Shown here piece after piece: positions 7,034 through 38,348 of a stretch of DNA of 46,886 bases (position 1 is its first letter; each line of letters begins with the position of its first letter). The stretch is taken from the NCBI GenBank assembly GCA_021776685.1, contig JAJFFJ010000098.1, positions 1-46,886 on the forward strand, in the 5' to 3' direction. A model generated the notes under the pieces. It made no database searches and had not been told where the DNA came from. It worked only from the letters and a program-made list of their open reading frames with translations. The translations under genes and the position numbers were made by a program. This stretch comes from Alphaproteobacteria bacterium (GTDB lineage: Bacteria; Pseudomonadota; Alphaproteobacteria; Bin65).

Positions 7034-7333
7034 ATGGGAATCAAGAACGTCAAACCGGACCTCGCCAGCAACCGGCTGGTCTTTGATATTAGGCGCGACA
7101 CCGGGCTGATGGACGACTTTCATCAGGACATGGACGCGGTCTTCGCACGCTATGGCCTGACCGATGCGGAGGTCGAGGCCTGGAAGGAACTGAACATCCA
7201 GGCGCTGGGTGATCTGGGGGTACATCCCTATTTCCTGCCGCAGATCAGCCGGATCTTCAAAGGCGGCGCCTACAACCACAACAACAGCGAGGCGGCCCAG
7301 CTCTATGCCAAGACGATGGTTGAGCAGGGATAA
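7034..7333 (+). CDS. LigA-type small subunit of an extradiol ring-cleavage dioxygenase
   Basis: 99 residues, a stand-alone helical LigA domain as in protocatechuate 4,5-dioxygenase alpha chains. The segment with MDAVFARYGLTDAEVEAWK, then DLGVHPYFLPQISRIFKG, is characteristic of this small family; the subunit covers the active site of its LigB partner. GGGAGA lies upstream of the ATG. The LigB-like gene starts 11 bp downstream, so the two are almost certainly co-translated as an alpha/beta dioxygenase. Substrate unknown: protocatechuate, gallate and aminophenol enzymes all share this architecture. Confidence 0.88.
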   Translation: MGIKNVKPDLASNRLVFDIRRDTGLMDDFHQDMDAVFARYGLTDAEVEAWKELNIQALGDLGVHPYFLPQISRIFKGGAYNHNNSEAAQLYAKTMVEQG

Positions 7334-7344
7334 GGGAGAGAGAC

Positions 7345-8190
7345 ATGGCTGAACTTGTTGCAAATATCGCCCTCTCCCACGCCCCCGGGCTCACCGGCTG
7401 GCTGGACCAGGCGCCGAAAGATGAAGCCGACCGGCTGGTCGCCGGTTTCGAAGAAATCGGCCGCCGTTTTCGCGCCACCAAGCCTGACCTTATTATTGGC
7501 CTGGCCAACGACCATTGCCTGAACATGCCGGTAGACGGGGTGCACGACTTCTGTGTCGGCACAGCGCCGCGTTGGCAGGGACCTGCGGACTGGTTCTCCG
7601 ACTGGCTGAACGTGCCGCCCTATAAGGTATCAGGACATGCGGAGGCTTCTGCCATCATCCGCGACCGGTTGCAGGGCGCCGGTTTCGACGCCACGGACTC
7701 CCAGGACCTGCTGTTTGACGACAACTGGTCCGTGCCGCTCTTGTACCTGACGCCGGACTATGACGTGGCGTTGGTGCCGATCCACATGAACTGCATCGTG
7801 CCGCCGCTGATTTCGCCGGAGAAATGCTATGCCGCCGGCCAGTTGCTGGCGAAAGTGATCCGGGAAGATCTGCCCGACGGCCTGCGGGTGGCGATCATGG
7901 GCACCGGCGGCCTCAGCCACGACCCCGGTGGACCCAAATATTTCGAGGTGGACGAAGAGTTTGACCGTTGGTTCCTGAGCCTGCTGGAAGCCGGTGACTC
8001 CCAAACCATGCTGCGCGAGGCGACCATCGAACGCATGGGTGCGGCGGGCGATGGCGGCACCACGGAGCTCTTGTCCTGGCTGATCCCCATGGGCGCGGCA
8101 GACGGTGTGGCGGCGACTACGGTCTGCTACGAACCCTCGGTGGCGCTCCGCTGCGGGATGGGCGCGGTTCACTGGCAGATGGCGGCATGA
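7345..8190 (+). CDS. LigB-type catalytic subunit of an extradiol dioxygenase
   Basis: 281 residues with the class III extradiol dioxygenase fold. From the LigB active site (His12, His61, Glu242 for Fe(II), His195 as base) the equivalents here are His12 (LSHAPG), His57 (NDHCLN), Glu241 (TTELLSW) and His192 (GGLSHDPGG), so the enzyme looks competent. It would insert O2 next to a pair of ortho hydroxyls, or a hydroxyl and an amino group. GGGAGAGAGAC precedes the ATG. The stop overlaps the next gene by ATGA (8187-8190). Protocatechuate 4,5-dioxygenase is the closest named relative I recognise, but the pathway genes around it differ from the lig operon. Confidence 0.9.
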   Translation: MAELVANIALSHAPGLTGWLDQAPKDEADRLVAGFEEIGRRFRATKPDLIIGLANDHCLNMPVDGVHDFCVGTAPRWQGPADWFSDWLNVPPYKVSGHAEASAIIRDRLQGAGFDATDSQDLLFDDNWSVPLLYLTPDYDVALVPIHMNCIVPPLISPEKCYAAGQLLAKVIREDLPDGLRVAIMGTGGLSHDPGGPKYFEVDEEFDRWFLSLLEAGDSQTMLREATIERMGAAGDGGTTELLSWLIPMGAADGVAATTVCYEPSVALRCGMGAVHWQMAA

Positions 8191-8831
8191 CCGTGACAGA
8201 TACCGAGCTGCTCACCGGCCTGGGCGAGATTGCTGATCCTGCTCATACGGCGCTGCTGGTCATCGACATGCAGAACGACTTCTGTGCCGAAGATGGCTAC
8301 GCGACGGTTCAGCTGAACAAAGACCTGAGCCCGTGCCGGGCGACGGTCGAGCCGATCATGCGCACGGTCGAGGCCGCGCGTGGCGCGGGCGTGCCGGTCC
8401 TGTGGGTGCGCGCCCACTATGACGACAGCTACATTGCCGCCCCGATGCGCGCCCGCAACCAGTTGATGGGCGCGACAGCCACCTGCTGCGCGGAAGGCAG
8501 TTGGGGCGCGGACTTTTTTGGCGTCGAGCCGGCCGAAGGCGAGCCCGTCATTAACAAGCACCGCTTCAACGCCTTTTTTGAAACCGGGCTGCATGAGCGC
8601 TTGCAGGGGATGGGCATTCGCTCCCTGGTGCTGACTGGCGTGCAGACCAACATCTGCATCGAGTCGACCTATCGTGAAGCCTTCAGCCTCGGATATTTTC
8701 TGGCAATCCCGGAAGATGGCGTGGCGTCCCACACGCTATCCTCACACGAGGCTTCCATGGCGAACTTCCGGTTTCTCTTCGGCGAAGTGACGTCATCCGA
8801 TGAGCTGACGGAAATCTGGGCCAATGGCTAA
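8187..8831 (+). CDS. Isochorismatase-family cysteine hydrolase
   Basis: 214 residues. The family triad is visible: Asp27 in LLVIDMQNDF, Lys124 in VINKHRFNAF and nucleophile Cys157 in TGVQTNICIEST, with the usual cis-peptide region before the Cys helix. Members include N-carbamoylsarcosine amidase, ureidoacrylate amidohydrolase and maleamate amidase (NicF). Between ring-cleavage and RidA genes, a C-N bond hydrolase acting on an amide or carbamoyl intermediate is the most natural role; this is inference from context. It overlaps LigB by four bases and the next gene by eight. Confidence 0.9.
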   Translation: MTVTDTELLTGLGEIADPAHTALLVIDMQNDFCAEDGYATVQLNKDLSPCRATVEPIMRTVEAARGAGVPVLWVRAHYDDSYIAAPMRARNQLMGATATCCAEGSWGADFFGVEPAEGEPVINKHRFNAFFETGLHERLQGMGIRSLVLTGVQTNICIESTYREAFSLGYFLAIPEDGVASHTLSSHEASMANFRFLFGEVTSSDELTEIWANG

Positions 8832-9276
8832 GCTCCCGCCCCTCGCTGACAACGTCTTCGAGACCTACCGGGCCATGGTGCTGCCGGCACAGTGCGATCA
8901 CTACGGCCACATGAATGTGCGCTTCTATGCCTGGCATTTCGACGAAGCAGGATTCCAGATCTGGACCTGCGCCGACGTAAGCCAGGCGGAGATGCGCGAG
9001 CGCGGGTTCCACGTGGTCGTCGCAAAAAGCACGACGCATTTCCGCCGCGAACTGGTGGTGGGCACGTCGATCCTGGTGCGCGCCGGATTCACCCATGTGG
9101 GCGACAAGAGCGTGGGCCACACCGGCAAGATGTACAACGCGGACACCGGCGACCTGAGTGCGATCCACGAAACGGTGGAGGTCTTCTTCGATCCGGAAAG
9201 CCGCAAGCCGGCGCCGATGCCCGACGACTACCGCGAGCGCCTGACAGCGCTGATCATTGATCCGGATACCGTCTGA
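8824..9276 (+). CDS. Hot-dog-fold thioesterase (4HBT type)
   Basis: 150 residues with a single hot-dog domain. The DHYGHMNVRFYAWHFDEA segment (25-42) is the 4-hydroxybenzoyl-CoA-thioesterase/FcbC-like signature, with Asp25 in the catalytic position and HMN following. The Val-rich strand HVVVAKSTTHFRRELVVGT is typical of the central helix and strand. It overlaps the preceding hydrolase by eight bases, so it belongs to the same operon. It probably hydrolyses an acyl-CoA or aromatic-CoA thioester in the cytosol. This is the last gene of the first plus-strand run; the next gene is on the opposite strand. Confidence 0.88.
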   Translation: MAKLPPLADNVFETYRAMVLPAQCDHYGHMNVRFYAWHFDEAGFQIWTCADVSQAEMRERGFHVVVAKSTTHFRRELVVGTSILVRAGFTHVGDKSVGHTGKMYNADTGDLSAIHETVEVFFDPESRKPAPMPDDYRERLTALIIDPDTV

Positions 9277-9311: not shown

Positions 9312-10336
9312 CTAGCCAGCAGCGGTCCGGTGCAGCGCCAGTAACCCCTCCACCTCCGTGGCCGCCATCCGGCCAAAGCCGCACTCGGCGGCGATGCCGA
9401 AGTCACGCCGCACCCGTTGCGCCGCGTCGATCCGTCGGCGGGCGCCTTCCACACCGTCAGCCAGATGCAGCAGGCCCAGATAGAGTTCGGTCTCTGCCGC
9501 AAGGCGCAGGTCGGTGAGCGGCGCGAAATAGGCATCGTCATCACGGTCCACAGGCACCGGCATGTGGATCCAGTCGATGGCGCGTCCTACGCCGCCAGTC
9601 AGGCCATTCGCGACCCACACCAGTTTTGCCAGATCTGCCGGCTCCTTCCAGTGCCGGTTGTTCATGCTGCCGTAACAGAGGTGAAAGCCAAGCTCGATGC
9701 CGTTCGGCACCGCATCGCCGAAGCGGCAGAGCCGTGACATGAGAACGCCGTCAGGATCATCCATGGGCGCTGGATAGACCCTCTCGAACAGGCTCATCTC
9801 GGTCGCCACATCCCATTGAACCGCCAGATCCTCCACCGGAAATGCACGGACCATCCGGTCAAGTTCCTCAAGTATGGCGGCTTCGTAGCGGGGGTAGACC
9901 GCCTCCTGGCTGTCGTATTCCGTGAACGCATAGATCGGGGCAAAAGGCGTTGGCAGACAGACCTGAAAGCGCGCGTCCCGCCGGAACCCGCCTGCTTCGC
10001 GCCGCGCTCTGAACAGGGCATAGGATTCCGTCGCGGCGTCAGCGAAACCCAGATTGCGGAAGGTCACCTGCGTCGCGTCCGCGCCCGCCTTCAGCCGCCA
10101 GGGGGCCGCAGCTGGTAATCGCGCTGGGGCGCGTCCAGGGGTTCGAAGGCCTCGTGGTCGGCGAAGGCCTTATGCTGCCAGGCGATCCAGTTGGTACGCT
10201 CACCAGTCTCGCCATCGGGAACCCGGTGCAGCACACTACCCAAGTGACGCGCCTCGGCGTCGAACACATCGGCGGCGGTTGCCAACGGCACGCTGCCGCA
10301 CAGCAGCACAGGCCTGTCTTCGCGGTTTCCGGTCAC
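9312..10336 (-). pseudogene. MetE/UROD-like protein, split by a one-base frameshift
   Basis: Two minus-strand frames together make one protein of about 340 residues. The first (10336 to 10091) has LLCGSVPL and RVPDGETGERTNWIAWQ, the N-terminus of an uncharacterised methionine-synthase-like family. The second (upstream of 10067, ending at 9312) carries the barrel with VQWDVATE, HLCYGS (His and Cys zinc ligands as in MetE/UROD folds) and a late ECGFGR supplying another Cys. At plus-strand 10101-10105 there is a run of five G. One extra base there would join the frames as ...YQLRPPWRLKAGADATQVTF..., which reads naturally. It is therefore either a real frameshift mutation or a homopolymer sequencing error. 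It is transcribed against its neighbours. Confidence 0.8.
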
Positions 10337-10440: not shown

Positions 10441-11130
10441 ATGGCCAACGACATCACCGGCACCGATATTCTTCTGACGGTTTTTCTGAAGCACGACCAG
10501 AGCCAGGCGCTGGACGAGTTTCAGAGCAAGCTTGATGCGCGGAAGTGGTGGCAGAACTTCCCGCCGGAGGGGGTCGAAGTGGTGTCCTGGAACGTGGTCA
10601 TGGGTATCGGGCAGATCGTGACCCTGAAGCTGCCGCCCAACCGGCTGCAGGCCGTGAATGTGGCGCTGGAGCGCTTTGCCTGGGGCGTCTTCCGCACGGA
10701 GACCTTCATCTCCTACGACTTCATGGCGGTGCGCGAGCGGCTGGCCGGAGAATCGGCGGCACGGCAGGACAATGCGGCCCCGCCTTCTGACGGAATGGCC
10801 ACTGACGAAGAGCCCGCTGACGAAGTACCCAGTGGCGCTGGCGGGAGTCACCACCCCCGCCTGCCGCCCAATGGTCTTTATCTGAGCGATACCCAGTCGA
10901 AGACCCACGAGCCGACGGCGTGGGAACAGCAGCTGGGCGATATCCTGGAAGTTGCCTTCAAGGCAGGCCAGCACGAGTTGCCGGCAGTGGTCGCTGCGTT
11001 GAACGGCGCGGGTCTGCCCATGCCGGACGGCAGGCTCTGGGACGAAGCCGGATTCGAGGCCGTGATGGAAAGACTGGGCACCGGCGAACAGATCGATGGC
11101 CCCGCCGTGGCCTCCACTGGGCCAAAGTGA
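10441..11130 (+). CDS. Two-domain accessory protein of the Rieske cluster (function unknown)
   Basis: 229 residues. Residues about 6-105 (LLTVFLKHDQSQ ... FPPEGVEVVSWNVVMGIGQIVTLKLPP ... FAWGVFRTETFISYDF) match a conserved small-protein pattern that I remember as a stand-alone hypothetical protein. A Pro/Gly/Asp-rich linker (about 106-140) leads to residues about 145-215 (YLSDTQSKTHEPTAWEQQLGDILEVAF ... LWDEAGFEAVMERLG). This second part resembles the 'recombinase-like helix-turn-helix' small proteins often encoded beside Rieske oxygenases. No catalytic motif is visible. It ends 11 bp before the Rieske gene, so the two are very likely co-translated. The domain identification is from memory and moderately sure. 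Confidence 0.75.
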   Translation: MANDITGTDILLTVFLKHDQSQALDEFQSKLDARKWWQNFPPEGVEVVSWNVVMGIGQIVTLKLPPNRLQAVNVALERFAWGVFRTETFISYDFMAVRERLAGESAARQDNAAPPSDGMATDEEPADEVPSGAGGSHHPRLPPNGLYLSDTQSKTHEPTAWEQQLGDILEVAFKAGQHELPAVVAALNGAGLPMPDGRLWDEAGFEAVMERLGTGEQIDGPAVASTGPK

Positions 11131-11141
11131 GGAGAGGCAGA

Positions 11142-12191
11142 ATGGCAGCAGCAACTCCCCGGCATCGCATCAGCCCTGAGGCGCAAAACATCCTGGATAC
11201 AGGGTTGCGCGAGCGCTGGTACGGCATCATTCCGTTGGATCTTATCGGCGATGGCCCCGCGCGGCTGACCCGTTGGGGCCGGCAACTGGTGATCTGGCGC
11301 GACAGTGACGGCGGGGTGCACCTGCTGGACGACCGATGCCCCCACCGCGGCGCGCCGCTTTCAATAGCGCGGCACGACGGCGACCGGCTGACCTGCGTCT
11401 ATCATGGCGCGCAGATCCTGGCGGACGGCACTGTCGCCGCCCTGCCCGGCGAACCCGATAGCGACCTGGTGGGCGCCTGTGGCGTTCACCGCTATCCCAC
11501 CCAGGAGCACCGTGGTTGCCTCTATGCCTGGCTGAGCGACTCAGACGCGCCGCCGCCGCCGCTGACCCTGCCGGAACGGCTGACCAGTGATGACTATGAG
11601 GCGTTTCTGGCCCACACCGAGTGGCGCTGCCCCTACCGCTTCCTGGTCGACAACAACATGGACCCGATGCATGGCGCCTTCCTGCACGCCACGTCCCATT
11701 CCATGGCGGAAGGCAGCAAGGAAGCGCAGTTTGGTCTACGCGAGACGGACAGCGGCTTTGTTTTCGAGAAGACCAACCAGAAGGATCTGAACTTCGATTG
11801 GTCCGAATGGTATGACAACACGATCCAGGCGGTGTGCCTAGAGATTCCCTATCCGGACACCGGCGGTCCGGGCGGCAACTTCGGCATCGTCTTCCACGTG
11901 ACGCCGATCGACGAAACCACCTCCGCCTGTTTCTTCTGGCGGCACCGCAAGGTCAGCGGCTGGCAGCGGGATGTGTGGAAATTTCTCTACCGCAACCGTC
12001 TGGAGGCCCGGCACTGGCATGTGCTTGAGCAGGACCGGCTGGTGTCGGAGACCATCGCCGCAAATGCCGACGACCAGGAATATCTCTACAGTCACGACCT
12101 GGGCCTGACCCGTGTGCGTACCCTTATGGCGCGCGAAGCGGAGAAACAGGCCCGCGCCGCGCATCAACCGGGCCAGCAGGCCGCCGAATAG
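11142..12191 (+). CDS. Rieske non-heme iron oxygenase, catalytic subunit
   Basis: 349 residues from the ATG at 11142, preceded by GAGGAGAGG; an open frame continues upstream but overlaps the previous gene. The [2Fe-2S] Rieske ligands are Cys66/His68 (CPHRG) and Cys85/His88 (CVYHG). The mononuclear iron site is N171-x2-D174-x2-H177-x4-H182 in NNMDPMHGAFLH, with Asp174 as the electron-bridging residue. The short length and N-terminal Rieske domain resemble vanillate O-demethylase/phthalate-type oxygenases (group with only alpha subunits). It would hydroxylate or demethylate an aromatic substrate. No reductase gene is in the window, so electrons must come from elsewhere. Confidence 0.92.
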   Translation: MAAATPRHRISPEAQNILDTGLRERWYGIIPLDLIGDGPARLTRWGRQLVIWRDSDGGVHLLDDRCPHRGAPLSIARHDGDRLTCVYHGAQILADGTVAALPGEPDSDLVGACGVHRYPTQEHRGCLYAWLSDSDAPPPPLTLPERLTSDDYEAFLAHTEWRCPYRFLVDNNMDPMHGAFLHATSHSMAEGSKEAQFGLRETDSGFVFEKTNQKDLNFDWSEWYDNTIQAVCLEIPYPDTGGPGGNFGIVFHVTPIDETTSACFFWRHRKVSGWQRDVWKFLYRNRLEARHWHVLEQDRLVSETIAANADDQEYLYSHDLGLTRVRTLMAREAEKQARAAHQPGQQAAE

Positions 12192-12202: not shown

Positions 12203-12604
12203 ATGGCCGACCGTATCGAGCAGATCACCTCCGCCGCCACCCCGGAGCCGCCTGGCAATATCTATACCCAGGCGCTCAAGGTCGGCGACCGGCTCTATCT
12301 CGCCGGGCAGACCGGCAATGGCCCTGACGGCAACATCGTCAGCGACAATCCCTACGAGCAGACCATTGCCTGCTTCCAGAATATCAAGAACCTGATCGAG
12401 GCCGCGGGGGGCACGATCAACGATATCGTCAAGCTGACGGTCTATCTGGTGGATATGGCCCACCGTCCTGACCTGGGCCGCGCCCGCAACGAATTCTTCC
12501 CAGGTCGCAAACCCTGCTCGACGTTGCTCGGCGTCAAAGCGCTGGCCGCACCTGAGTATCTGGTCGAGGTGGACGCGGAAGTGATTTTGGGGGCCGGCGG
12601 CTAA
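12203..12604 (+). CDS. RidA/YjgF/Rid-family protein
   Basis: 133 residues with the full Rid fold (PPGNIYTQALKVGDRLYLAGQTG ... ENLI-type helix ... VKLTVYLVDM). In canonical RidA an Arg near position 105 binds the imine/enamine carboxylate; by alignment that place is occupied by Cys in the KPCSTLLGVKAL segment, so this is probably not an archetypal imine deaminase. 2-aminomuconate deaminases of aminophenol pathways belong to this broad family, and that role would fit the neighbouring extradiol dioxygenase (inference). GGGAG sits upstream of the ATG, 11 bp after the Rieske gene. It ends the second plus-strand run. Confidence 0.9.
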   Translation: MADRIEQITSAATPEPPGNIYTQALKVGDRLYLAGQTGNGPDGNIVSDNPYEQTIACFQNIKNLIEAAGGTINDIVKLTVYLVDMAHRPDLGRARNEFFPGRKPCSTLLGVKALAAPEYLVEVDAEVILGAGG

Positions 12605-27247: not shown

Positions 27248-28714
27248 GTGGGCACCGCATTAGTTCCATGGTGGGTGTTGATCGGGCTGCTGGCGATGTC
27301 ATCGCTGGCGGTGGCGGCATTTGTTGTGCTGCCGCTCTATCGCTGGTTCCGGGGGTATCGGGCGAAGCAGGTACTGGGCGAGGTCCGGCACCGCCTGCAG
27401 ATGCCGTTGCCGGACTTCCTGCTGACCCGCCGCCGGGTTCTGGCCGACCGTGTGGCCAACGACCCCAAGGTCTTGGAGGTGATCGACGCGCTGTCCGCAG
27501 AGCCTGGCGCGTCCCGCCAGGCAATCATGAGGCGGGCCTACAAGATCGCCTACGACGTGGTGCCGAGCTTCAATCCGGCGTTCTATTTCCGACTCGGCTA
27601 CTGGATGGCGCGGAGCTTTCTGCGCAGCCTCTACAAGGTCAGGCTCGGCTATCAGGACCATGCGGCGCTCGGGAGACTGGGCGACGACATCAGCCTGATC
27701 TTCATGCTGAACCACCGCACCAACATCGACTATATCCTGTCTACATATCTGACCGCCCAGCGCAGCATTATGTCCTACGGCGTCGGCGAGTGGGCACGGA
27801 CCTTCCCGATCCAGCCGCTGATGCGGGCGGCGGGCGGCTATTTCCTCCGCCGGGAATCCGACGACCCGCTCTACCGCCGCATCCTGCAGCGCTATGTGCA
27901 ACTGGCCACCGACGCCAAGGTGCCCCACGCGATCTTTCCCGAAGGTCAGCTCAGCCGCTGGGGTGGCCTGCACGAGCCGCGTCTCGGACTGCTGAGCTAC
28001 ATCACCGCCGACTACGACCCGGTCCGAAGCCCGGATCTCGTCATCATTCCCATCGGCACCAACTATGACCGGGTGCCGGAAGAAGCGACGGTGATTGCCC
28101 ATGCGGACGAGAGTTTCGTCGGCCGCGGGCGCCTGTTCGTGATCCGTGTGGGTGTTGGCTTTCTTGCCCGCACAGCGTTCGAACTGCTGATCCGCTGGCG
28201 TCGCCCGTTCGGCTATGGCTGCGCCAACTTCGGCACGCCGATTTCCTTCAACGCCTGGCTTCGGGACCATTGGGTGGACTGGGCCAGTCTCGACCGGGCC
28301 GAGCGATTCCATTGGCTGCAGCGCTTTGGTGCGCATTTCATGACGGAGATTGCGGGCCTGATCCCGGTGCTGCCCTCCTCTGCCCTCTGCACCGTGCTGA
28401 TGGACGCACGCGACGAAGGTTCGGGCGATATCCTGGACGAGGACGAAATCGCACGACGCATGCGCGCGGCATGGCGGCGCTTCGGTGACGCGGGCGCCCA
28501 CATCTATCTGCCCGGCGGCGACGAAGACCGTGCGATCCGGGAAGCCATGGACACCTTGCGCCGCCGCAAGGCCATTGTCCGGCGCAACGGCGGCTGGCAC
28601 GTGCCGGAAAAACAATGGACCTGGGTCAACTATTGCGGCAACTCCGTCCGCCATTTCCTGACCGGGGAGTCCGCAATCGCGCCGCGTTCCCTTGACGCGC
28701 ACGCACTGGAGTAG
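27248..28714 (+). CDS. Glycerol-3-phosphate/lysophosphatidate-type acyltransferase
   Basis: 488 residues, starting with GTG after GGGGGAGG. A hydrophobic N-terminal segment (about 8-32) is probably a membrane anchor. The acyltransferase motif 1 is NHRTNID with His156 and Asp161 (HxxxxD), and motif 3 is FPEGQLSRWGG (about 230-240). The size and the NHRTN/FPEG forms recall the catalytic core of PlsB and DHAP acyltransferases more than the short PlsC. It probably acylates a glycerophosphate at the inner membrane. It ends 70 bp before a Rieske gene on the same strand. Confidence 0.88.
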   Translation: MGTALVPWWVLIGLLAMSSLAVAAFVVLPLYRWFRGYRAKQVLGEVRHRLQMPLPDFLLTRRRVLADRVANDPKVLEVIDALSAEPGASRQAIMRRAYKIAYDVVPSFNPAFYFRLGYWMARSFLRSLYKVRLGYQDHAALGRLGDDISLIFMLNHRTNIDYILSTYLTAQRSIMSYGVGEWARTFPIQPLMRAAGGYFLRRESDDPLYRRILQRYVQLATDAKVPHAIFPEGQLSRWGGLHEPRLGLLSYITADYDPVRSPDLVIIPIGTNYDRVPEEATVIAHADESFVGRGRLFVIRVGVGFLARTAFELLIRWRRPFGYGCANFGTPISFNAWLRDHWVDWASLDRAERFHWLQRFGAHFMTEIAGLIPVLPSSALCTVLMDARDEGSGDILDEDEIARRMRAAWRRFGDAGAHIYLPGGDEDRAIREAMDTLRRRKAIVRRNGGWHVPEKQWTWVNYCGNSVRHFLTGESAIAPRSLDAHALE

Positions 28715-28784
28715 GGTTCAAGAGGCGAGAGCGCGTGTCTTGTGTTATCTTCATGATCCACCCGCCAACCCTCTGGAGGCCGGG

Positions 28785-29963
28785 ATGCCTGACGATATTG
28801 CCAGACCTGACCCCGATATTCTTGCGGCATCGATTGCAGAGTCCCTGTCGAAGCCATTGACGGAAGCGCGCGGTCTTCCCGCGGCAGCCTATACCGACCC
28901 CGGACAGTTTGACCGCGAGCAGGAACGGCTTTTCCGCGGCGGCTGGGTTGGCGTCGCCTTCTCCCACGACATTCCGGAACCAGGCGATTCGATCCCGATG
29001 AATGTCGCTGGGGCAGAAATCGTCGTTTTGCGTGATCAGGACGGACAAGTCCGCGCCTTCCACAACGTCTGCCGCCACCGCGCCGCCCGTGTGTTGCAGG
29101 AACCGGGCAAGGGGCTCAAGTCCCTGAGCTGTCCCTACCATTCCTGGACCTACGGCCTGGACGGATGCCTCAAATCTGCACCGATGTTCGAAGGGCCGGG
29201 TAAGGGGCCCACAGGGTCACTCGACGGCCAGGCATACGGCCTGCTGCCCGTGGTGTGTCACGAGTGGTCAGACTTCGTCTTCGTCAATCTGGATGGCGAA
29301 GCGACACCGTTCGAGGACTATATCGGCTATCTGGACGACCGGTTCGCGAATTTCGACCTCGCCCATTTCCCGCCCTACACCCACCATGAGTTGACCTTGA
29401 ACGCCAACTGGAAGGTGGTGATGGAAGGGGTGCTCGAGGTCTATCACGAGAAGTTCGTCCACCCGAAGCTCGACTACCGGATTGGCAAAAATGGCGAGCA
29501 GACCTGGAACGACGCCCTCAAGGGCGACACCATGGGTTTCATCGGCATACTGCCAGACGGGGAGGAAGACAAGCCGTTGGGTGCCCTGCCACGGGTACCG
29601 GGCATGCCGGAAACCGGCCCTGCCGTCCCGGACATTTTCCTGATGTTCCCGTCAACGTCCATCAACGTGATGGAAGACCACATCGTCCGCACCCTCTGGA
29701 CGCCGGTGTCACCGACGGAGACACGCTGGCGCTCTTGCTGGTATTTCGCACCGGGCGCGGCGGACGACGCGGCACAACGCAAGGCCTGCGATGAGGCCGT
29801 CGCCTTCTGGCTCGAGATCCGCAACGAAGACGCCCCCCTGGTGGAAGAGGTACAGGCCGGCCTATCTGCCTGGCACCCAACGCCGCGCAACACGGTCTTC
29901 TCCCCCTATTGGGAAGCCATCGTCCGCCACTTCCAGCAGCAGGTGGTCAACGGACTGCGCTAA
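28785..29963 (+). CDS. Rieske ring-hydroxylating oxygenase alpha subunit
   Basis: 392 residues from ATG 28785, where TGGAGG lies six bases upstream; a longer frame overlaps the acyltransferase gene. Rieske ligands are Cys96/His98 (NVCRHRA) and Cys116/His119 (CPYHSW). The catalytic iron ligands are His221 and His226 (VYHEKFVH), with Glu218 where most relatives have the bridging Asp. Carnitine and glycine-betaine oxygenases (CntA, GbcA) also have a Glu there, so the substrate may be aliphatic and quaternary, or it may be aromatic. It is separate from the accessory block and faces gloB across nine bases. Confidence 0.92.
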   Translation: MPDDIARPDPDILAASIAESLSKPLTEARGLPAAAYTDPGQFDREQERLFRGGWVGVAFSHDIPEPGDSIPMNVAGAEIVVLRDQDGQVRAFHNVCRHRAARVLQEPGKGLKSLSCPYHSWTYGLDGCLKSAPMFEGPGKGPTGSLDGQAYGLLPVVCHEWSDFVFVNLDGEATPFEDYIGYLDDRFANFDLAHFPPYTHHELTLNANWKVVMEGVLEVYHEKFVHPKLDYRIGKNGEQTWNDALKGDTMGFIGILPDGEEDKPLGALPRVPGMPETGPAVPDIFLMFPSTSINVMEDHIVRTLWTPVSPTETRWRSCWYFAPGAADDAAQRKACDEAVAFWLEIRNEDAPLVEEVQAGLSAWHPTPRNTVFSPYWEAIVRHFQQQVVNGLR

Positions 29964-32841: not shown

Positions 32842-33735
32842 TTACTCCGCCGCCGCGGCAACACCGTCAAGCATGCCGAGGGACCGGAGTGTCTCCTCAA
32901 CACGCTGGCGGGAGCTGTCCGCAATTGGCGCCAGCGGCAGCCGGGTGTCCGGACCGCACATGCCCATCAGGCTGGCGGCATACTTGACCGGCCCGGGATT
33001 GGATTCACAGAACAGCGAATCATGCAGCGGCAGCAGCAGCTCGTTGAGCCGGCGCGCCTCAGCGAAATCGCCCCGCTCCCAGGCGGCATGCATGTCGGCG
33101 CACCAGCGCGGTGCGATGTTCGACGTGACCGAAATGCAGCCGTCGCCAGACTGCGCCAGCAACGCCAGGGCTGTTGCATCCTCACCGGAGAGAATCGAGA
33201 AATCCTCACCACAGGTCAGCCGCGTCGCCAAAGGCCGCGCAAGGTCCATGGTCGCGTCCTTCACACCAATGATATTGGAGTGCTTCGCCAGCTCCGCCAT
33301 GGTCTCAATCGACATATCGACGATCGAGCGCGGCGGGATATTGTAGATGATCAGCGGCGGCCCGGCGTCCGCCATGGCCGTGAAATGCGCAATCATGCCG
33401 GCCTGGGTCGGCTTATTATAATAAGGCACAACAGAAAGCTGCGCCGCGGCTCCCGCCGCCTTGGCATGTTCGGCCAGCTCGACGCCCTCTGCCGTGCAGT
33501 TTGAGCCGGTGCCGGCAATCACCGGCACACGGCCGGCTGCAACCTCGATACACAACTCAACCACGCGCTTGTGCTCGTCATGATTGAGCGTCGGCGATTC
33601 GCCCGTCGTCCCACAGGGGACCAATGCAACCGTGCCTTCTGCTATCTGCCAGTTGACCAGACGGCGGAATGCATCCTCGTCCACTTGATCGTCCCGCAGC
33701 GGCGTAATCAGCGCCGTTATCGAACCCTTGAACAT
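32842..33735 (-). CDS. dapA: 4-hydroxy-tetrahydrodipicolinate synthase
   Basis: 297 residues. It condenses pyruvate with aspartate semialdehyde in lysine/diaminopimelate synthesis. The Schiff-base Lys159 is in IIGVKDATMD, with Tyr131 (LIIYNIPPR) and the GTTGES motif (42-47). It reads ITALITPLRDDQVDE at the start, as expected. It is divergent from the first lytic transglycosylase gene, the two starts being 129 bp apart. Peptidoglycan precursor supply fits the cell-wall genes beside it. Confidence 0.96.
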   Translation of the reverse strand: MFKGSITALITPLRDDQVDEDAFRRLVNWQIAEGTVALVPCGTTGESPTLNHDEHKRVVELCIEVAAGRVPVIAGTGSNCTAEGVELAEHAKAAGAAAQLSVVPYYNKPTQAGMIAHFTAMADAGPPLIIYNIPPRSIVDMSIETMAELAKHSNIIGVKDATMDLARPLATRLTCGEDFSILSGEDATALALLAQSGDGCISVTSNIAPRWCADMHAAWERGDFAEARRLNELLLPLHDSLFCESNPGPVKYAASLMGMCGPDTRLPLAPIADSSRQRVEETLRSLGMLDGVAAAAE

Positions 33736-33864
33736 TTGTCCGACCTTTCCCGTACCTGTCTTGTGTTGGGACGATCATACGCCTGCCCCATTCACGGGAC
33801 AAGATATCCACAAACCAGAGCCTTCCTACGGCCCCGCCCTGCCCTTCCTGCCTGCCTCTCCCAT

Positions 33865-35880
33865 ATGTTGCAAATGATGCTGCGAATTATCCTGACCTGC
33901 CTGCTGGCCGCTTTTTGGGGCTCCGCTGCGACCGCCGCACCTCCAAACGCCTCCCCCACCGCATCCCTCGCCGCCGCCGATATCAAGGCTGCCCGTGCGG
34001 TGATCGAGGCGGTGGAAAAGCCCGACTATGACGCCGCGTGGGCCGCCGTGGAGAAGGTGAAGTCCGACCCGGTCCGTAAAGCGCTGCGCTGGTATCTGCT
34101 GGTTGACCCGAAATCCGGCGCCTCATTTGCGGACCTCACCGGCTTCGCCCTCGACAATCCGGACTGGCCGGGAATTGCCAGCCTGCGCCGGAATGCGGAC
34201 AAGGCCCTGCGCGACGACACGCCGGTGGCGGAAATAATCGCATGGTTCAAACGCTTCGGCCCGGTCAGCGCCAGGGGCTGGCAGGCCTATGCCGGCGCGC
34301 TCACAAAAACCGGCGCAGGCGCCACAGTGGCGCGGCTAGTGCAGGCCACCTGGCGCGGCACGCGGATGTCCCTGGTGAATCAACTGGCTTTCCTCCAGGC
34401 GTTTGGGAAAATGCTCCGGCCTGAAGATCACGCCGCCCGTCTGCGCCTGCTGCTGGCCCAGCGCCGCGGCCGCTGGGTTGTGGCGCGGCTGCTGCCGGTG
34501 CTGCCGGTCCCGGAAACCGACAAGACCCTGCTGCGCCTTCGGCTGAAGTTGCAAAGCCGGATCGCCGCCACGTCGATCATCGAGGTAACCGAAGCGCTCA
34601 GCCGGGTGACCGACGCGCAGCGACGGCGGGAAGGCTTCCTGCTGGACGAAATTCGCTGGCTGCGCCGACAGGGCCGGCTGGAGGAAGCAGCCGCCCTTCT
34701 TTCACATGCCCCGGACACCCCCAAATTCACCCGCCGCTGGTTGGTGGCGCGCACGGCGCTTGCCTACGCATTGCTGCAGGAGAAGAAGCCGGCGCCGGCC
34801 TATGCGGCTGTGGCCGGACACCGCCAACCGCCTGGCTATGGCAAGGCCCGCAGCGAATTCGTCGCCGGGTGGATCGCGCTGCGCTGGCTGAAAAAGCCAG
34901 GGTTGGCCCGCACGCATTTCCAGACCATCTACACGTCGTCCCGGTTCAGCATCAGCAAGGCGCGGGGCGCCTACTGGATCGCGCGCGCGGAGGCGGCGGC
35001 AGGCAAACCCAAAGCGCACACCACCTGGATGCGCACCACGGCCGCCTATACCCTGACTTTCTATGGCCAACTTGCCGCCGCCAAACTTGGACTGCGCAGG
35101 CTGGTGTTACCGGCCCACCGCCCGGTCACGGCCGCGGCGCGCAAGGCGATCGATGCGGAGCCGATGGCAGTTGCTGCCAGGCTCTTCGCACATCTGGCTA
35201 AACGGGACGCTGCCCGCGCCTTCCTCTGGCGACTGCTTAACAGCGCAAAAAACGCGCCGCGCATGGCCGCAGTCGCGGACTTCGCCTATCGCATCCGCCA
35301 CCGCCCAGTGGGGGTCCGCGCCGCACGCCGTGCGTTGATGCGGCTGCATCCAGCGATTCGTCCTGGCTATCCCACATTGCCTTTCGCCCGGCACACCCGG
35401 GTCGAGCGCGCCCTGATCCATGCCATCATCCGCCAGGAATCGGAGTTTGACGCCCGCGCCATCAGCCGCTCCAACGCCCGCGGCTTGATGCAGCTGTTGC
35501 CGTCGACCGCCCGGCAAGTGGCCCGCAACCTGCGCCTCCGCTACAGCTACGCGCGGCTGACAGAGGATCCAGCATTCAACGTGAAGCTGGGCAGCGGCTA
35601 TCTGGATTATCTGCTGAAACGCTTCCGCGGCAGCTATGTGCTGACCATCGCGTCCTACAATGCAGGGCCCAACCGGGTGCAGCAGTGGATAACCACCAAT
35701 GGCGACCCACGCGAAAAATCGATCGACCTACTCGACTGGATGGAGCTGATTCCGATCGGGGAAACCCGAAATTACGTCCAGCGCGTACTTGAGAATCTGG
35801 CGGTCTACCGGGCATTGTCGCGACAAGCGGCGGTTGGCCGCGACATGCGTCCGCTTTGGCAATCCCGCGCCTATCGATAG
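33865..35880 (+). CDS. slt: Soluble lytic murein transglycosylase (first of two)
   Basis: 671 residues from ATG 33865; two further in-frame ATGs follow at 33874 and 33877. A signal peptide (about residues 1-25, ending SAATAAP) exports it to the periplasm. The first 450 residues are the alpha-helical superhelical ring of Slt70-type enzymes. The C-terminal GEWL-like domain has IIRQESEFDARAIS with catalytic Glu525, then SNARGLMQLLPSTARQVA and SYNAGPNRVQQW. It cleaves between MurNAc and GlcNAc to form 1,6-anhydro ends. Slt80/Slt70-like genes next to dapA are usual in alphaproteobacteria. A second homologue follows. Confidence 0.93.
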   Translation: MLQMMLRIILTCLLAAFWGSAATAAPPNASPTASLAAADIKAARAVIEAVEKPDYDAAWAAVEKVKSDPVRKALRWYLLVDPKSGASFADLTGFALDNPDWPGIASLRRNADKALRDDTPVAEIIAWFKRFGPVSARGWQAYAGALTKTGAGATVARLVQATWRGTRMSLVNQLAFLQAFGKMLRPEDHAARLRLLLAQRRGRWVVARLLPVLPVPETDKTLLRLRLKLQSRIAATSIIEVTEALSRVTDAQRRREGFLLDEIRWLRRQGRLEEAAALLSHAPDTPKFTRRWLVARTALAYALLQEKKPAPAYAAVAGHRQPPGYGKARSEFVAGWIALRWLKKPGLARTHFQTIYTSSRFSISKARGAYWIARAEAAAGKPKAHTTWMRTTAAYTLTFYGQLAAAKLGLRRLVLPAHRPVTAAARKAIDAEPMAVAARLFAHLAKRDAARAFLWRLLNSAKNAPRMAAVADFAYRIRHRPVGVRAARRALMRLHPAIRPGYPTLPFARHTRVERALIHAIIRQESEFDARAISRSNARGLMQLLPSTARQVARNLRLRYSYARLTEDPAFNVKLGSGYLDYLLKRFRGSYVLTIASYNAGPNRVQQWITTNGDPREKSIDLLDWMELIPIGETRNYVQRVLENLAVYRALSRQAAVGRDMRPLWQSRAYR

Positions 35881-36014
35881 GAAATCGCCCCTCGCAGTTA
35901 ACGCTAACTCCTAAGCAAACTGGGCAATTCTGTTCGCCGGGAGGGAACAGCTCGGGTACAGTGCGCGTAGTAGTTGGTTAAGTCACGGGGTTGGACCTAA
36001 ACGACGGGGTGGGG

Positions 36015-38348
36015 ATGTTGATTTTGTCCCTCGACTATCTGAATCAGGCGCTGAAGCGAACAGCGGGCCGTCCTGCTGCGGGCATTTTGCTCGCGGCTGG
36101 CCTGAGCACGGCTGCAGCCGCACCGGCATCGGCGCAATATCTCGCGCCCGGCGACATTCAAAATGCGCGGGCGGCGGTCCGGGCCTATGGCACCGGCAAT
36201 TATGGTGACGGCCGTGCCGCGCAATCGCGAATTGCCGACCCGGTGGTGAAGAAGGTGGTCGCCTGGTTTGCACATACCCGGCTCAGCTCGCAGTCCAGCT
36301 TTGCCGAGATCACCCGCTTCATCCAGGACAATCCCCACTGGCCCTGGCAGAAGCAGCTTCGCCGCAACGCGGAATTGGCGGTGCGCAGCCGCACCGACCC
36401 CAGCCGCATCATCGCCTTCTACAAGGGTTCGCCGCCTCACAAGTTCGCTGGGCAAAAACTGGCGATTGATCGGCTGATGAGCGCAGGCCGCAAGGTGGCC
36501 GCCGTTCGCCTGATCCGCGGCGCCTGGGGCAATCGATATCTACGCCCCCGTCAGTCCGCTGAATTTCGCAGCCGTTACGGGGCCCATCTTCGGCCTCAGG
36601 ATCACTACGCACGGCTCGACTATCTGCTCTTTGCCGGCCACAAAAAAACGGCGCGTCGTCTCTTCGGACAGGTCACCCTCTCCGCTGCCATGCGCGATGG
36701 CATCCGGGCGCGGCTGCAGATGAATCTCGGACGCCACTATTGCGGCAGACGCCGTGGTGGCTACACGGCTGTTACGGCAACCTTGTCACGCGTCCCTTAC
36801 AAACTGCGGCGGGGCGAAGGCTTCAGCTTCGACCTCATGCGCTTCTATTCCTGCGCCGGCCGCATCGGCAAGGCCGTGGAGGCGATGGCGACCCAGCCGT
36901 CGCGGCCCCGTTTCGCCGCCCGTTGGTGGCGCGAACGCAGCAAGCTGGCCCGCGATGCCATCAAGGCCAAACAGTATCGCATCGCCTATGAAATCGCGCG
37001 CGGCCACAGGCAGTTCGGGCAGTCCCTGCATGGCCATGCGGAATGGTTCGCTGGATTTGTCGCCATGCAGCTGTTGCGCAATCACAAGCTGGCCGATCAA
37101 CATTTCCGCGGCGCGCTCGCCAGCGTGAAGAGCGGCTGGACCCGGTCGAAAATTCTCTACTGGCATGGCCGCCTGAAAGCGGCGCAGGGAAAATCCAAAG
37201 AGGCACGGACCTTCTTCCTGGTCGCCTCCAAATACGCCACCACCTTCTATGGCCAGCTGGCTCATGGGCTGGTGCTCGGCGGCAAGCCGCCGCTGATCCG
37301 CACCAAACTGGGCCGGCCTACCGGTCCAGCCTTCTGGCGCGATGACATCGTCAAGGGGATGGTCGTTGCCCGGCGGCTGGGCATGTGGCGCGAGAGCTGG
37401 TCGCTGGCGCGCTTTATCATGCTGCATCGGGCCAAGACCGCGGCCCAGCACATGTATGCAGTGGCCACGCTGAACCAGTTGACCAGTCCGGCGAAGCGGC
37501 GGCAGATGAATGTGCGGGTGATCAAATACGCCCAGTTCAAGGGGCACCCGCTGATCGGCAGAGGCTACCCGACCATCGACCTGCCTGCGGCAAACACCGT
37601 GGAGCCGGCTCTGATCTACGCACTGATCCGTCAGGAAAGCGAATTCCAGCCGGCGGCCCGCAGCTGGGCCGGCGCCCGTGGCTATATGCAGCTGATGCCC
37701 TCCACGGCCAGAGCGGAGGCGCGTAGCATGAAGCTGCGCTACCGCACACAATTCCTCACCCGCCGTCCGGCTTATAACCTGCGGCTGGGAACCAATCATG
37801 TGGCGCGTCTGTTGACCGCGCTTAACGGCGCCTATCCGATGGTGCTGGCCGCCTACAATGCGGGCGAGCACCGGGTCAACCAATGGGTTTCCTGGCATGG
37901 CGACCCGCGCAAAAAGGGCGGCCCCGATTGGGCTACCTGGATTGAGCTGATCAAGTTCGATGAAACCCGTGACTATGTGAAACGGGTCCTCGAATCACAC
38001 ACCGTCTATCGCCTGCTGTTGAAGGACAAGATCGACACGCGGCGTCTGACCGCTTACTGGCGGCCCCAGAAGGTCGACCGCAAAGGCGCTTGCGAGATCG
38101 TCAGACTGGCGAAGAAACGGCGCACACGCTCGACGCTGGTTGCGTCCGGAAAAGCTGGCAAGTCCGGCAAGAAATCCCGGCGCGGCACGACCGCGATGAT
38201 GACCGACTATGCCTTTGGGCGCAGCCTGGTGATCAACCGCCGCGGCAAGGCCCCAGCGAAGGCCGCCAAGAAACGGGCGAATCCGCTGGCCCTGGTTGAC
38301 CGGCGGCCCCATGACAACATCGCCGGCGCGCCTGACTGCGACGGCTAG
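36015..38348 (+). CDS. slt: Soluble lytic murein transglycosylase (second, tandem)
   Basis: 777 residues from ATG 36015, though GTG 36009 or TTG 35991 are possible since G-rich sequence runs through the region. The N-terminus has an Ala-rich exported stretch ending APASAQ near residue 41. The ring domain is helical, and the GEWL domain has IRQESEFQPAARS with catalytic Glu541, GYMQLMPSTARA and AAYNAGEHRVNQW. After the domain comes a 110-residue basic extension (KKRRTRSTL, KAGKSGKKSRRG) that the first paralogue lacks. It is 134 bp downstream of the first copy, on the same strand. Confidence 0.93.
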   Translation: MLILSLDYLNQALKRTAGRPAAGILLAAGLSTAAAAPASAQYLAPGDIQNARAAVRAYGTGNYGDGRAAQSRIADPVVKKVVAWFAHTRLSSQSSFAEITRFIQDNPHWPWQKQLRRNAELAVRSRTDPSRIIAFYKGSPPHKFAGQKLAIDRLMSAGRKVAAVRLIRGAWGNRYLRPRQSAEFRSRYGAHLRPQDHYARLDYLLFAGHKKTARRLFGQVTLSAAMRDGIRARLQMNLGRHYCGRRRGGYTAVTATLSRVPYKLRRGEGFSFDLMRFYSCAGRIGKAVEAMATQPSRPRFAARWWRERSKLARDAIKAKQYRIAYEIARGHRQFGQSLHGHAEWFAGFVAMQLLRNHKLADQHFRGALASVKSGWTRSKILYWHGRLKAAQGKSKEARTFFLVASKYATTFYGQLAHGLVLGGKPPLIRTKLGRPTGPAFWRDDIVKGMVVARRLGMWRESWSLARFIMLHRAKTAAQHMYAVATLNQLTSPAKRRQMNVRVIKYAQFKGHPLIGRGYPTIDLPAANTVEPALIYALIRQESEFQPAARSWAGARGYMQLMPSTARAEARSMKLRYRTQFLTRRPAYNLRLGTNHVARLLTALNGAYPMVLAAYNAGEHRVNQWVSWHGDPRKKGGPDWATWIELIKFDETRDYVKRVLESHTVYRLLLKDKIDTRRLTAYWRPQKVDRKGACEIVRLAKKRRTRSTLVASGKAGKSGKKSRRGTTAMMTDYAFGRSLVINRRGKAPAKAAKKRANPLALVDRRPHDNIAGAPDCDG

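What the first reader, a model, noticed from the sequence alone, without database searches (positions are those of the whole stretch)
10441..11130. Fusion of two small Rieske-associated proteins into one
The product joins a conserved ~100-residue domain of unknown function to a 'recombinase-like helix-turn-helix' small domain by a Pro/Asp/Gly linker, directly before the Rieske gene. If each half is a separate protein elsewhere, the fusion implies that they work together, for example as a small subunit, a chaperone or a regulatory partner of the oxygenase.
Basis: partly seen in the sequence, partly recalled or inferred. Interest (0 to 1): 0.6.

Follow-up and report, generated by a model that had tools for sequence, protein, structure and literature searches.

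The report
Fused partner protein of Rieske oxygenase
The gene is a genuine fusion of two small proteins that elsewhere sit as separate neighbours directly before the same kind of oxygen-inserting (Rieske) enzyme, and one half, wrongly named a DNA-binding protein, turns out to accompany one branch of these enzymes almost without exception, so it is probably an unrecognised working partner of that enzyme.

Summary
ORF 10441-11130 (229 aa) joins an unnamed ~100-residue domain (NT) to PF20552 'HTH_62' by a disordered linker, 11 bp before a Rieske oxygenase alpha gene.

The halves exist separately. In 71 of 77 related loci that also carry HTH_62 and this Rieske, NT and HTH_62 are separate genes, usually in the order NT, HTH_62, Rieske, RidA, often with 4-nt overlaps. 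Fusion occurred once, in the window's bacterial family, where sister genera keep the split form.

The stronger result concerns HTH_62. In two random sets (299 and 385 genomes), every strong HTH_62 locus lies beside a Rieske gene of one clade, and every intact gene of that clade lies beside HTH_62 (10/10 and 19/19). Other Rieskes lack it. All 93 HTH_62 domains examined are acidic, arguing against DNA binding. HTH_62 is therefore probably a dedicated small partner (subunit or maturation factor) of that clade. NT has a ferredoxin-like fold with conserved polar residues and also occurs apparently exported without Rieske, so it is more likely a pathway enzyme or ligand-binding domain.

Physical docking is not shown: AlphaFold gave only a pTM (0.70), without PAE or coordinates. 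The papers searched describe nothing similar.

The parts
10441..11130 (+). fused gene NT-linker-HTH_62, 229 aa
   Evidence: same fusion in 6 of the 80 loci and in 6 other genomes of the window's family
10453..10749 (+). NT domain (residues 5-103), predicted beta-alpha-beta-beta-alpha-beta ferredoxin-like fold with conserved polar residues
   Evidence: own-profile match; AlphaFold2; conservation
10774..10875 (+). Pro/Asp/Gly-rich linker (about residues 112-145), mostly disordered in the model, absent where the genes are split
   Evidence: pLDDT below 50 at 127-153
10876..11079 (+). HTH_62 domain (PF20552), residues 146-213; Q152 and W200 invariant in 93 relatives
   Evidence: conservation
11142..12191 (+). 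Rieske oxygenase alpha subunit, 349 aa, VanA-type, of the HTH_62-linked clade
12203..12604 (+). RidA-family (enamine/imine deaminase-like) protein, conserved next to the Rieske gene
   Evidence: RidA relative in 67 of 80 loci; conserved through the fused clade

Best explanation
HTH_62 is not a DNA-binding regulator. It is a small, acidic, three-helix accessory protein dedicated to one clade of alpha-only Rieske oxygenases, most likely binding the alpha trimer as a small subunit or docking/maturation factor. The NT domain is a ferredoxin-like-fold (probably dimeric alpha+beta barrel type) ligand-binding or enzymatic domain that handles the substrate or product of the same pathway. In the ancestor of two genera of the window's family the two genes, whose reading frames already overlapped or abutted, became one, tethering the NT step to the oxygenase's partner and fixing their ratio. 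Shown: the fusion, the split forms, the one-to-one co-inheritance of HTH_62 with the Rieske clade, the single origin of the fusion, the acidity. Inferred: physical binding of HTH_62 to the oxygenase, the catalytic or ligand-binding role of NT, and the benefit of tethering.
For: Split forms next to Rieske: Caballeronia annotated record; 77 of 80 loci with both HTH_62 and a clade Rieske; 37 of 63 split NT/HTH_62 pairs overlap by exactly 4 nt. Reciprocal test: 10 HTH_62 loci = 10 clade Rieske loci in 299 genomes, 19 = 19 in 385 genomes, same contigs and strand, at most 2.9 kb apart; 16 other Rieske loci show no HTH_62 within about 1.5 kb; a Streptomyces locus also has the pair. HTH_62-linked Rieskes group together (94/98, just under the starred threshold) and the seven fused loci are one clade (95/100). 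HTH_62 pI 4.05-6.3 in 93 of 93. NT conserved residues H18, W50, N73, E77, W81, T86, E87, Y92, D93 are shared with the Rieske-free relatives.
Against: No physical interaction is shown; the three-domain model has pTM 0.70 and no PAE or coordinates were available. In about half of the class-sample loci HTH_62 is 2.3-2.9 kb from the Rieske gene, in the one examined with two ABC-transporter genes and a cupin gene between, so tight adjacency is not universal. Co-inheritance alone would also fit a maturation factor or another pathway step.
Confidence: 0.6

Rival explanations
1. HTH_62 is an assembly or maturation chaperone (for example for the [2Fe-2S] cluster, the mononuclear iron, or trimer assembly), not a permanent subunit.
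For: Strict co-inheritance without strict adjacency; small acidic helical protein.
Against: Other Rieske oxygenases in the same genomes do without it; nothing in its sequence suggests cluster or metal ligands (only Q and W are invariant).
Confidence: 0.22
2. HTH_62 is a DNA-binding autoregulator of the catabolic operon, as its database name suggests.
For: Named a recombinase-like helix-turn-helix domain in Pfam; the predicted three-helix arrangement is compatible.
Against: All 93 domains acidic, pI 4.05-6.3; the clusters mostly have an IclR regulator already (57 of 80 loci); fused here to a metabolic-looking domain.
Confidence: 0.06
3. HTH_62 helps the electron-transfer partner (reductase or ferredoxin) dock on an alpha-only oxygenase.
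For: Acidic surface expected; its gene lies between a ferredoxin or reductase gene and the alpha gene in some loci (L049, L050; L165).
Against: Electron donors vary (Rieske ferredoxin or VanB-type reductase) while HTH_62 stays; no direct test.
Confidence: 0.1
4. The fusion is incidental: two genes that overlapped by 4 nt were joined by a frameshift and no functional coupling exists.
For: Single origin; 4-nt overlaps make joining easy.
Against: Kept with a long linker in seven genomes of two genera and in the diverged locus L060; both halves keep their conserved residues.
Confidence: 0.2

Closest known systems
PF20552 HTH_62 (PGAP name: recombinase-like helix-turn-helix domain-containing protein)
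   Same: Same domain, far above the family cut-off.
   Different: The name implies DNA binding; here every strong member examined sits in a Rieske oxygenase gene cluster and is acidic.
Alpha-only (alpha3) Rieske non-heme iron oxygenases such as dicamba monooxygenase, carbazole dioxygenase, SxtT, GdmA
   Same: Rieske and VanA_C domains, length about 340-350 aa, best sequence and fold matches in the PDB.
   Different: No more than about 80 bits to any solved structure; none of the systems tabulated in a 2025 review (PMC12445004) has an HTH_62-type partner.
Rieske oxygenase beta subunit
   Same: A small non-catalytic protein encoded beside alpha (review PMC12445004).
   Different: HTH_62 is a 70-residue three-helix domain; known beta subunits have a larger NTF2/SnoaL-type fold (own knowledge).
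Dimeric alpha+beta barrel superfamily (GYD, DUF3303, muconolactone isomerase-like ClcF)
   Same: NT is predicted with the same strand-helix order; weak hits to DUF3303 and GYD and structural resemblance to 4-methylmuconolactone methylisomerase and ClcF.
   Different: No significant sequence match; best Foldseek E-value 1.3e-3 and only one Z above 8, to an unrelated row.
IacB of indole-3-acetate catabolism (PMC7225977)
   Same: Also a small protein of unknown role encoded with a Rieske oxygenase.

Membership tests
PF20552 HTH_62 | whole-protein score over the curated cut-off (27 bits) | tested here: met
   81.6 bits
DNA-binding helix-turn-helix regulator | basic DNA-contacting surface | tested here: not met
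   pI 4.05-6.3 in 93 of 93 domains; net charge only, the surface itself was not examined
DNA-binding helix-turn-helix regulator | binds specific DNA | not testable with these tools
   needs a binding assay
Rieske non-heme iron oxygenase alpha subunit (neighbour) | Rieske motif CxH-CxxH and a mononuclear-iron C-terminal domain | tested here: met
   PF00355 and PF19112 over cut-off; C.H..C..H motif in all nine HTH_62-linked Rieskes L047-L055
Rieske oxygenase beta subunit | NTF2/SnoaL-like alpha+beta fold of about 150-190 residues | tested here: not met
   HTH_62 is 72 positions and three helices in the model
Dimeric alpha+beta barrel superfamily (for NT) | ferredoxin-like fold forming a dimeric barrel | tested here: inconclusive
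   predicted beta-alpha-beta-beta-alpha-beta; weak DUF3303/GYD hits; dimerisation not tested
Subunit of the oxygenase (physical complex) | confident predicted or measured complex with the alpha subunit | tested here: inconclusive
   read-through chain NT-HTH_62-Rieske from L064, pTM 0.70, no PAE or coordinates

The most novel reading that the evidence does not exclude
HTH_62 proteins are a previously unrecognised small subunit that defines a new quaternary class of Rieske oxygenases (alpha3 plus a three-helix subunit), required for activity throughout one clade, and in this lineage the subunit carries a tethered enzyme that processes the oxygenase's product.
Probability: 0.38. Interest if true: 0.75.

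Novelty: new variant of a known kind. Interest (0 to 1): 0.58.

Why it matters
Rieske oxygenases of this clade sit in many catabolic gene clusters of Proteobacteria and at least one Streptomyces. If HTH_62 is required, purified oxygenases of this clade tested without it may look inactive, and the 'recombinase-like HTH' name hides the connection. The natural fusion gives a ready construct for testing the complex.

Tried and rejected
Viral contigs: no NT relative. PDB by sequence: no relative of the fused protein, of NT, or of HTH_62 at meaningful E-values. A full co-fold was not available; a natural in-frame read-through of L064 was used, and the result has no PAE. Residue coevolution between HTH_62 and Rieske was not attempted: about 100 paired, closely related sequences are too few. 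Possible links to IacB and to the four-component PicB of picolinate degradation (PMC10142695) could not be tested because their sequences or papers were not held. Neighbour genes of the Rieske-free NT forms showed no conserved family. Conserved pathway neighbours of the window (LigA, LigB, isochorismatase, thioesterase) are not shared with the other fused loci, so the substrate remains unknown. 'Recombinase' was rejected: nothing else in the protein or its surroundings suggests one.

Full report
What is there. The gene at 10441-11130 codes for 229 residues. Residues 146-213 are PF20552 'HTH_62' (81.6 bits, cut-off 27). The first ~105 residues (NT) match no named family in Pfam or NCBIfam. The gene is followed after 11 bp by a VanA-type Rieske oxygenase alpha gene (11142-12191) and then a RidA gene (12203-12604). 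The AlphaFold2 model of the protein (mean pLDDT 79.9, pTM 0.45) shows an NT domain of order beta-alpha-beta-beta-alpha-beta, a disordered stretch at 127-153, and three helices at 160-213. The low pTM suggests that the two domains are not placed firmly against each other.

The halves apart. In a Caballeronia plasmid both halves are separate annotated genes directly before Rieske, RidA and a VanB-type reductase. A scan of genome contigs with the NT alignment found 560 relatives, of which the 80 most like the window's NT were kept (this sample is therefore not neutral). Of these 80, 77 carry HTH_62 and a Rieske of the window's kind. The three others are a contig that ends just after NT (L059), L112, whose Rieskes are of another kind, and the cyanobacterial L130. 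RidA is present in 67, a PcaR-type IclR regulator and an alpha/beta hydrolase in 57 each. Where NT and HTH_62 are split and in line, 37 of 63 pairs overlap by exactly 4 nt, and most others lie within a few nt. In seven loci NT is divergent from HTH_62-Rieske, and in one it follows RidA.

Where the fusion arose. Fused loci among the 80: L060-L064 and L132. On the Rieske tree the seven fused loci, window included, form one clade (95/100). In the window's own family, the window's genus and genus g155 (seven genomes in all) are fused, while two sister genera (G657, G659) keep separate adjacent genes. The only neighbours conserved between the window and the other fused loci are Rieske and RidA.

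HTH_62 and one Rieske clade. In 299 genomes of the phylum the strong HTH_62 matches (44 bits or more) lie in ten loci; the window's Rieske finds ten loci at 268 bits or more, and they are the same ten. The next Rieske is at 89 bits, and 16 such loci have no HTH_62 within about 1.5 kb. In 385 genomes of the class the 19 HTH_62 loci and the 19 Rieske loci at 246 bits or more fall in the same 15 genomes, pairwise on the same contig and strand, 35 bp to 2.9 kb apart. The one further Rieske hit (G402) is a 131-residue match with a stop codon inside and has no HTH_62. The two genome sets overlap in part and include related genomes, so the counts are not fully independent; they do cover 10 genera in the class set, and a Streptomyces plasmid shows the same pair. 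Where the distance is 2.3-2.9 kb, the locus examined (L055, own genome) has two ABC-transporter genes and a cupin gene in between; similar transporter genes occur in most of the clusters.

What HTH_62 is likely to do. All 93 HTH_62 domains are acidic (pI 4.05-6.3), which argues against DNA binding. Only Q152 and W200 (window numbering) are invariant, with E170, L187, N188 and G176 nearly so. The obvious reading is a protein partner of the oxygenase. Whether it is a subunit, a chaperone or an electron-transfer adaptor is not decided. A read-through chain of L064 (NT, HTH_62 and Rieske in one frame, stops read as Gly) gave pTM 0.70 over 596 residues. By my rough estimate this is somewhat more than expected if neither small domain were placed, but without PAE it is weak evidence. 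A 2025 review lists alpha3, alpha3beta3, alpha3alpha'3 and alpha3alpha3 assemblies and no such partner (PMC12445004); literature searches for HTH_62 with Rieske found nothing, within an open-access library only.

What NT is likely to do. NT keeps H18, W50, M54, G55, G57, N73, E77, W81, T86, E87, Y92 and D93 both in Rieske-linked and in Rieske-free relatives. In the 299-genome sample the eight NT genes outside the window lie with no HTH_62 or Rieske nearby, and seven have a hydrophobic, signal-peptide-like start. Weak hits to DUF3303 and GYD and structural resemblance to 4-methylmuconolactone methylisomerase and ClcF suggest the dimeric alpha+beta barrel superfamily, but nothing is significant. 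A small enzyme or ligand-binding role in the pathway is inferred.

Verdict. The fusion is real, single in origin as far as the tree shows, and joins proteins that are neighbours elsewhere. The larger point is the near-perfect pairing of HTH_62 with one Rieske clade. The mechanism is inferred; the physical complex needs a test.

Noticed in passing
G000:C38:54500-67500 (L055), own genome, outside the window: A second HTH_62-Rieske cluster in the same genome without NT: HTH_62, ABC ATPase, permease, cupin, Rieske, SDR, alpha/beta hydrolase, IclR, with a molybdopterin-dehydrogenase FAD subunit gene divergent from it, which hints at N-heterocycle breakdown.
   Followed up: partly
window 9312-10336 (-): Two minus-strand reading frames (9312-10067 and 10091-10336) divergent from the fused gene look like one gene broken by a frameshift; the larger has no Pfam match.
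   Followed up: partly
window 28692-29963 (+): Another, larger Rieske-type oxygenase, judged from its sequence; no strong HTH_62 match lies near it.
   Followed up: no
L005, L039-L045 (and L130): Relatives of NT with signal-peptide-like starts and no Rieske or HTH_62 nearby; strongly conserved, function unknown, no conserved neighbours.
   Followed up: partly
L195 (G402:C85): A window-type Rieske fragment with an in-frame stop and no HTH_62 match in its genome: perhaps a decayed gene that has lost its partner.
   Followed up: partly
window 7034-9276 (+): LigA-like, LigB-like extradiol dioxygenase, isochorismatase-family and thioesterase genes in a row, upstream of the fused gene on the same strand; not shared with the other fused loci.
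   Followed up: partly
window 33571-38348 (+): Two neighbouring long ORFs look like tandem paralogues of lytic transglycosylases.
   Followed up: no
PF20552 annotation in public records (L004, L006-L008): The automatic name 'recombinase-like helix-turn-helix domain-containing protein' is probably misleading for these Rieske-linked proteins.
   Followed up: yes
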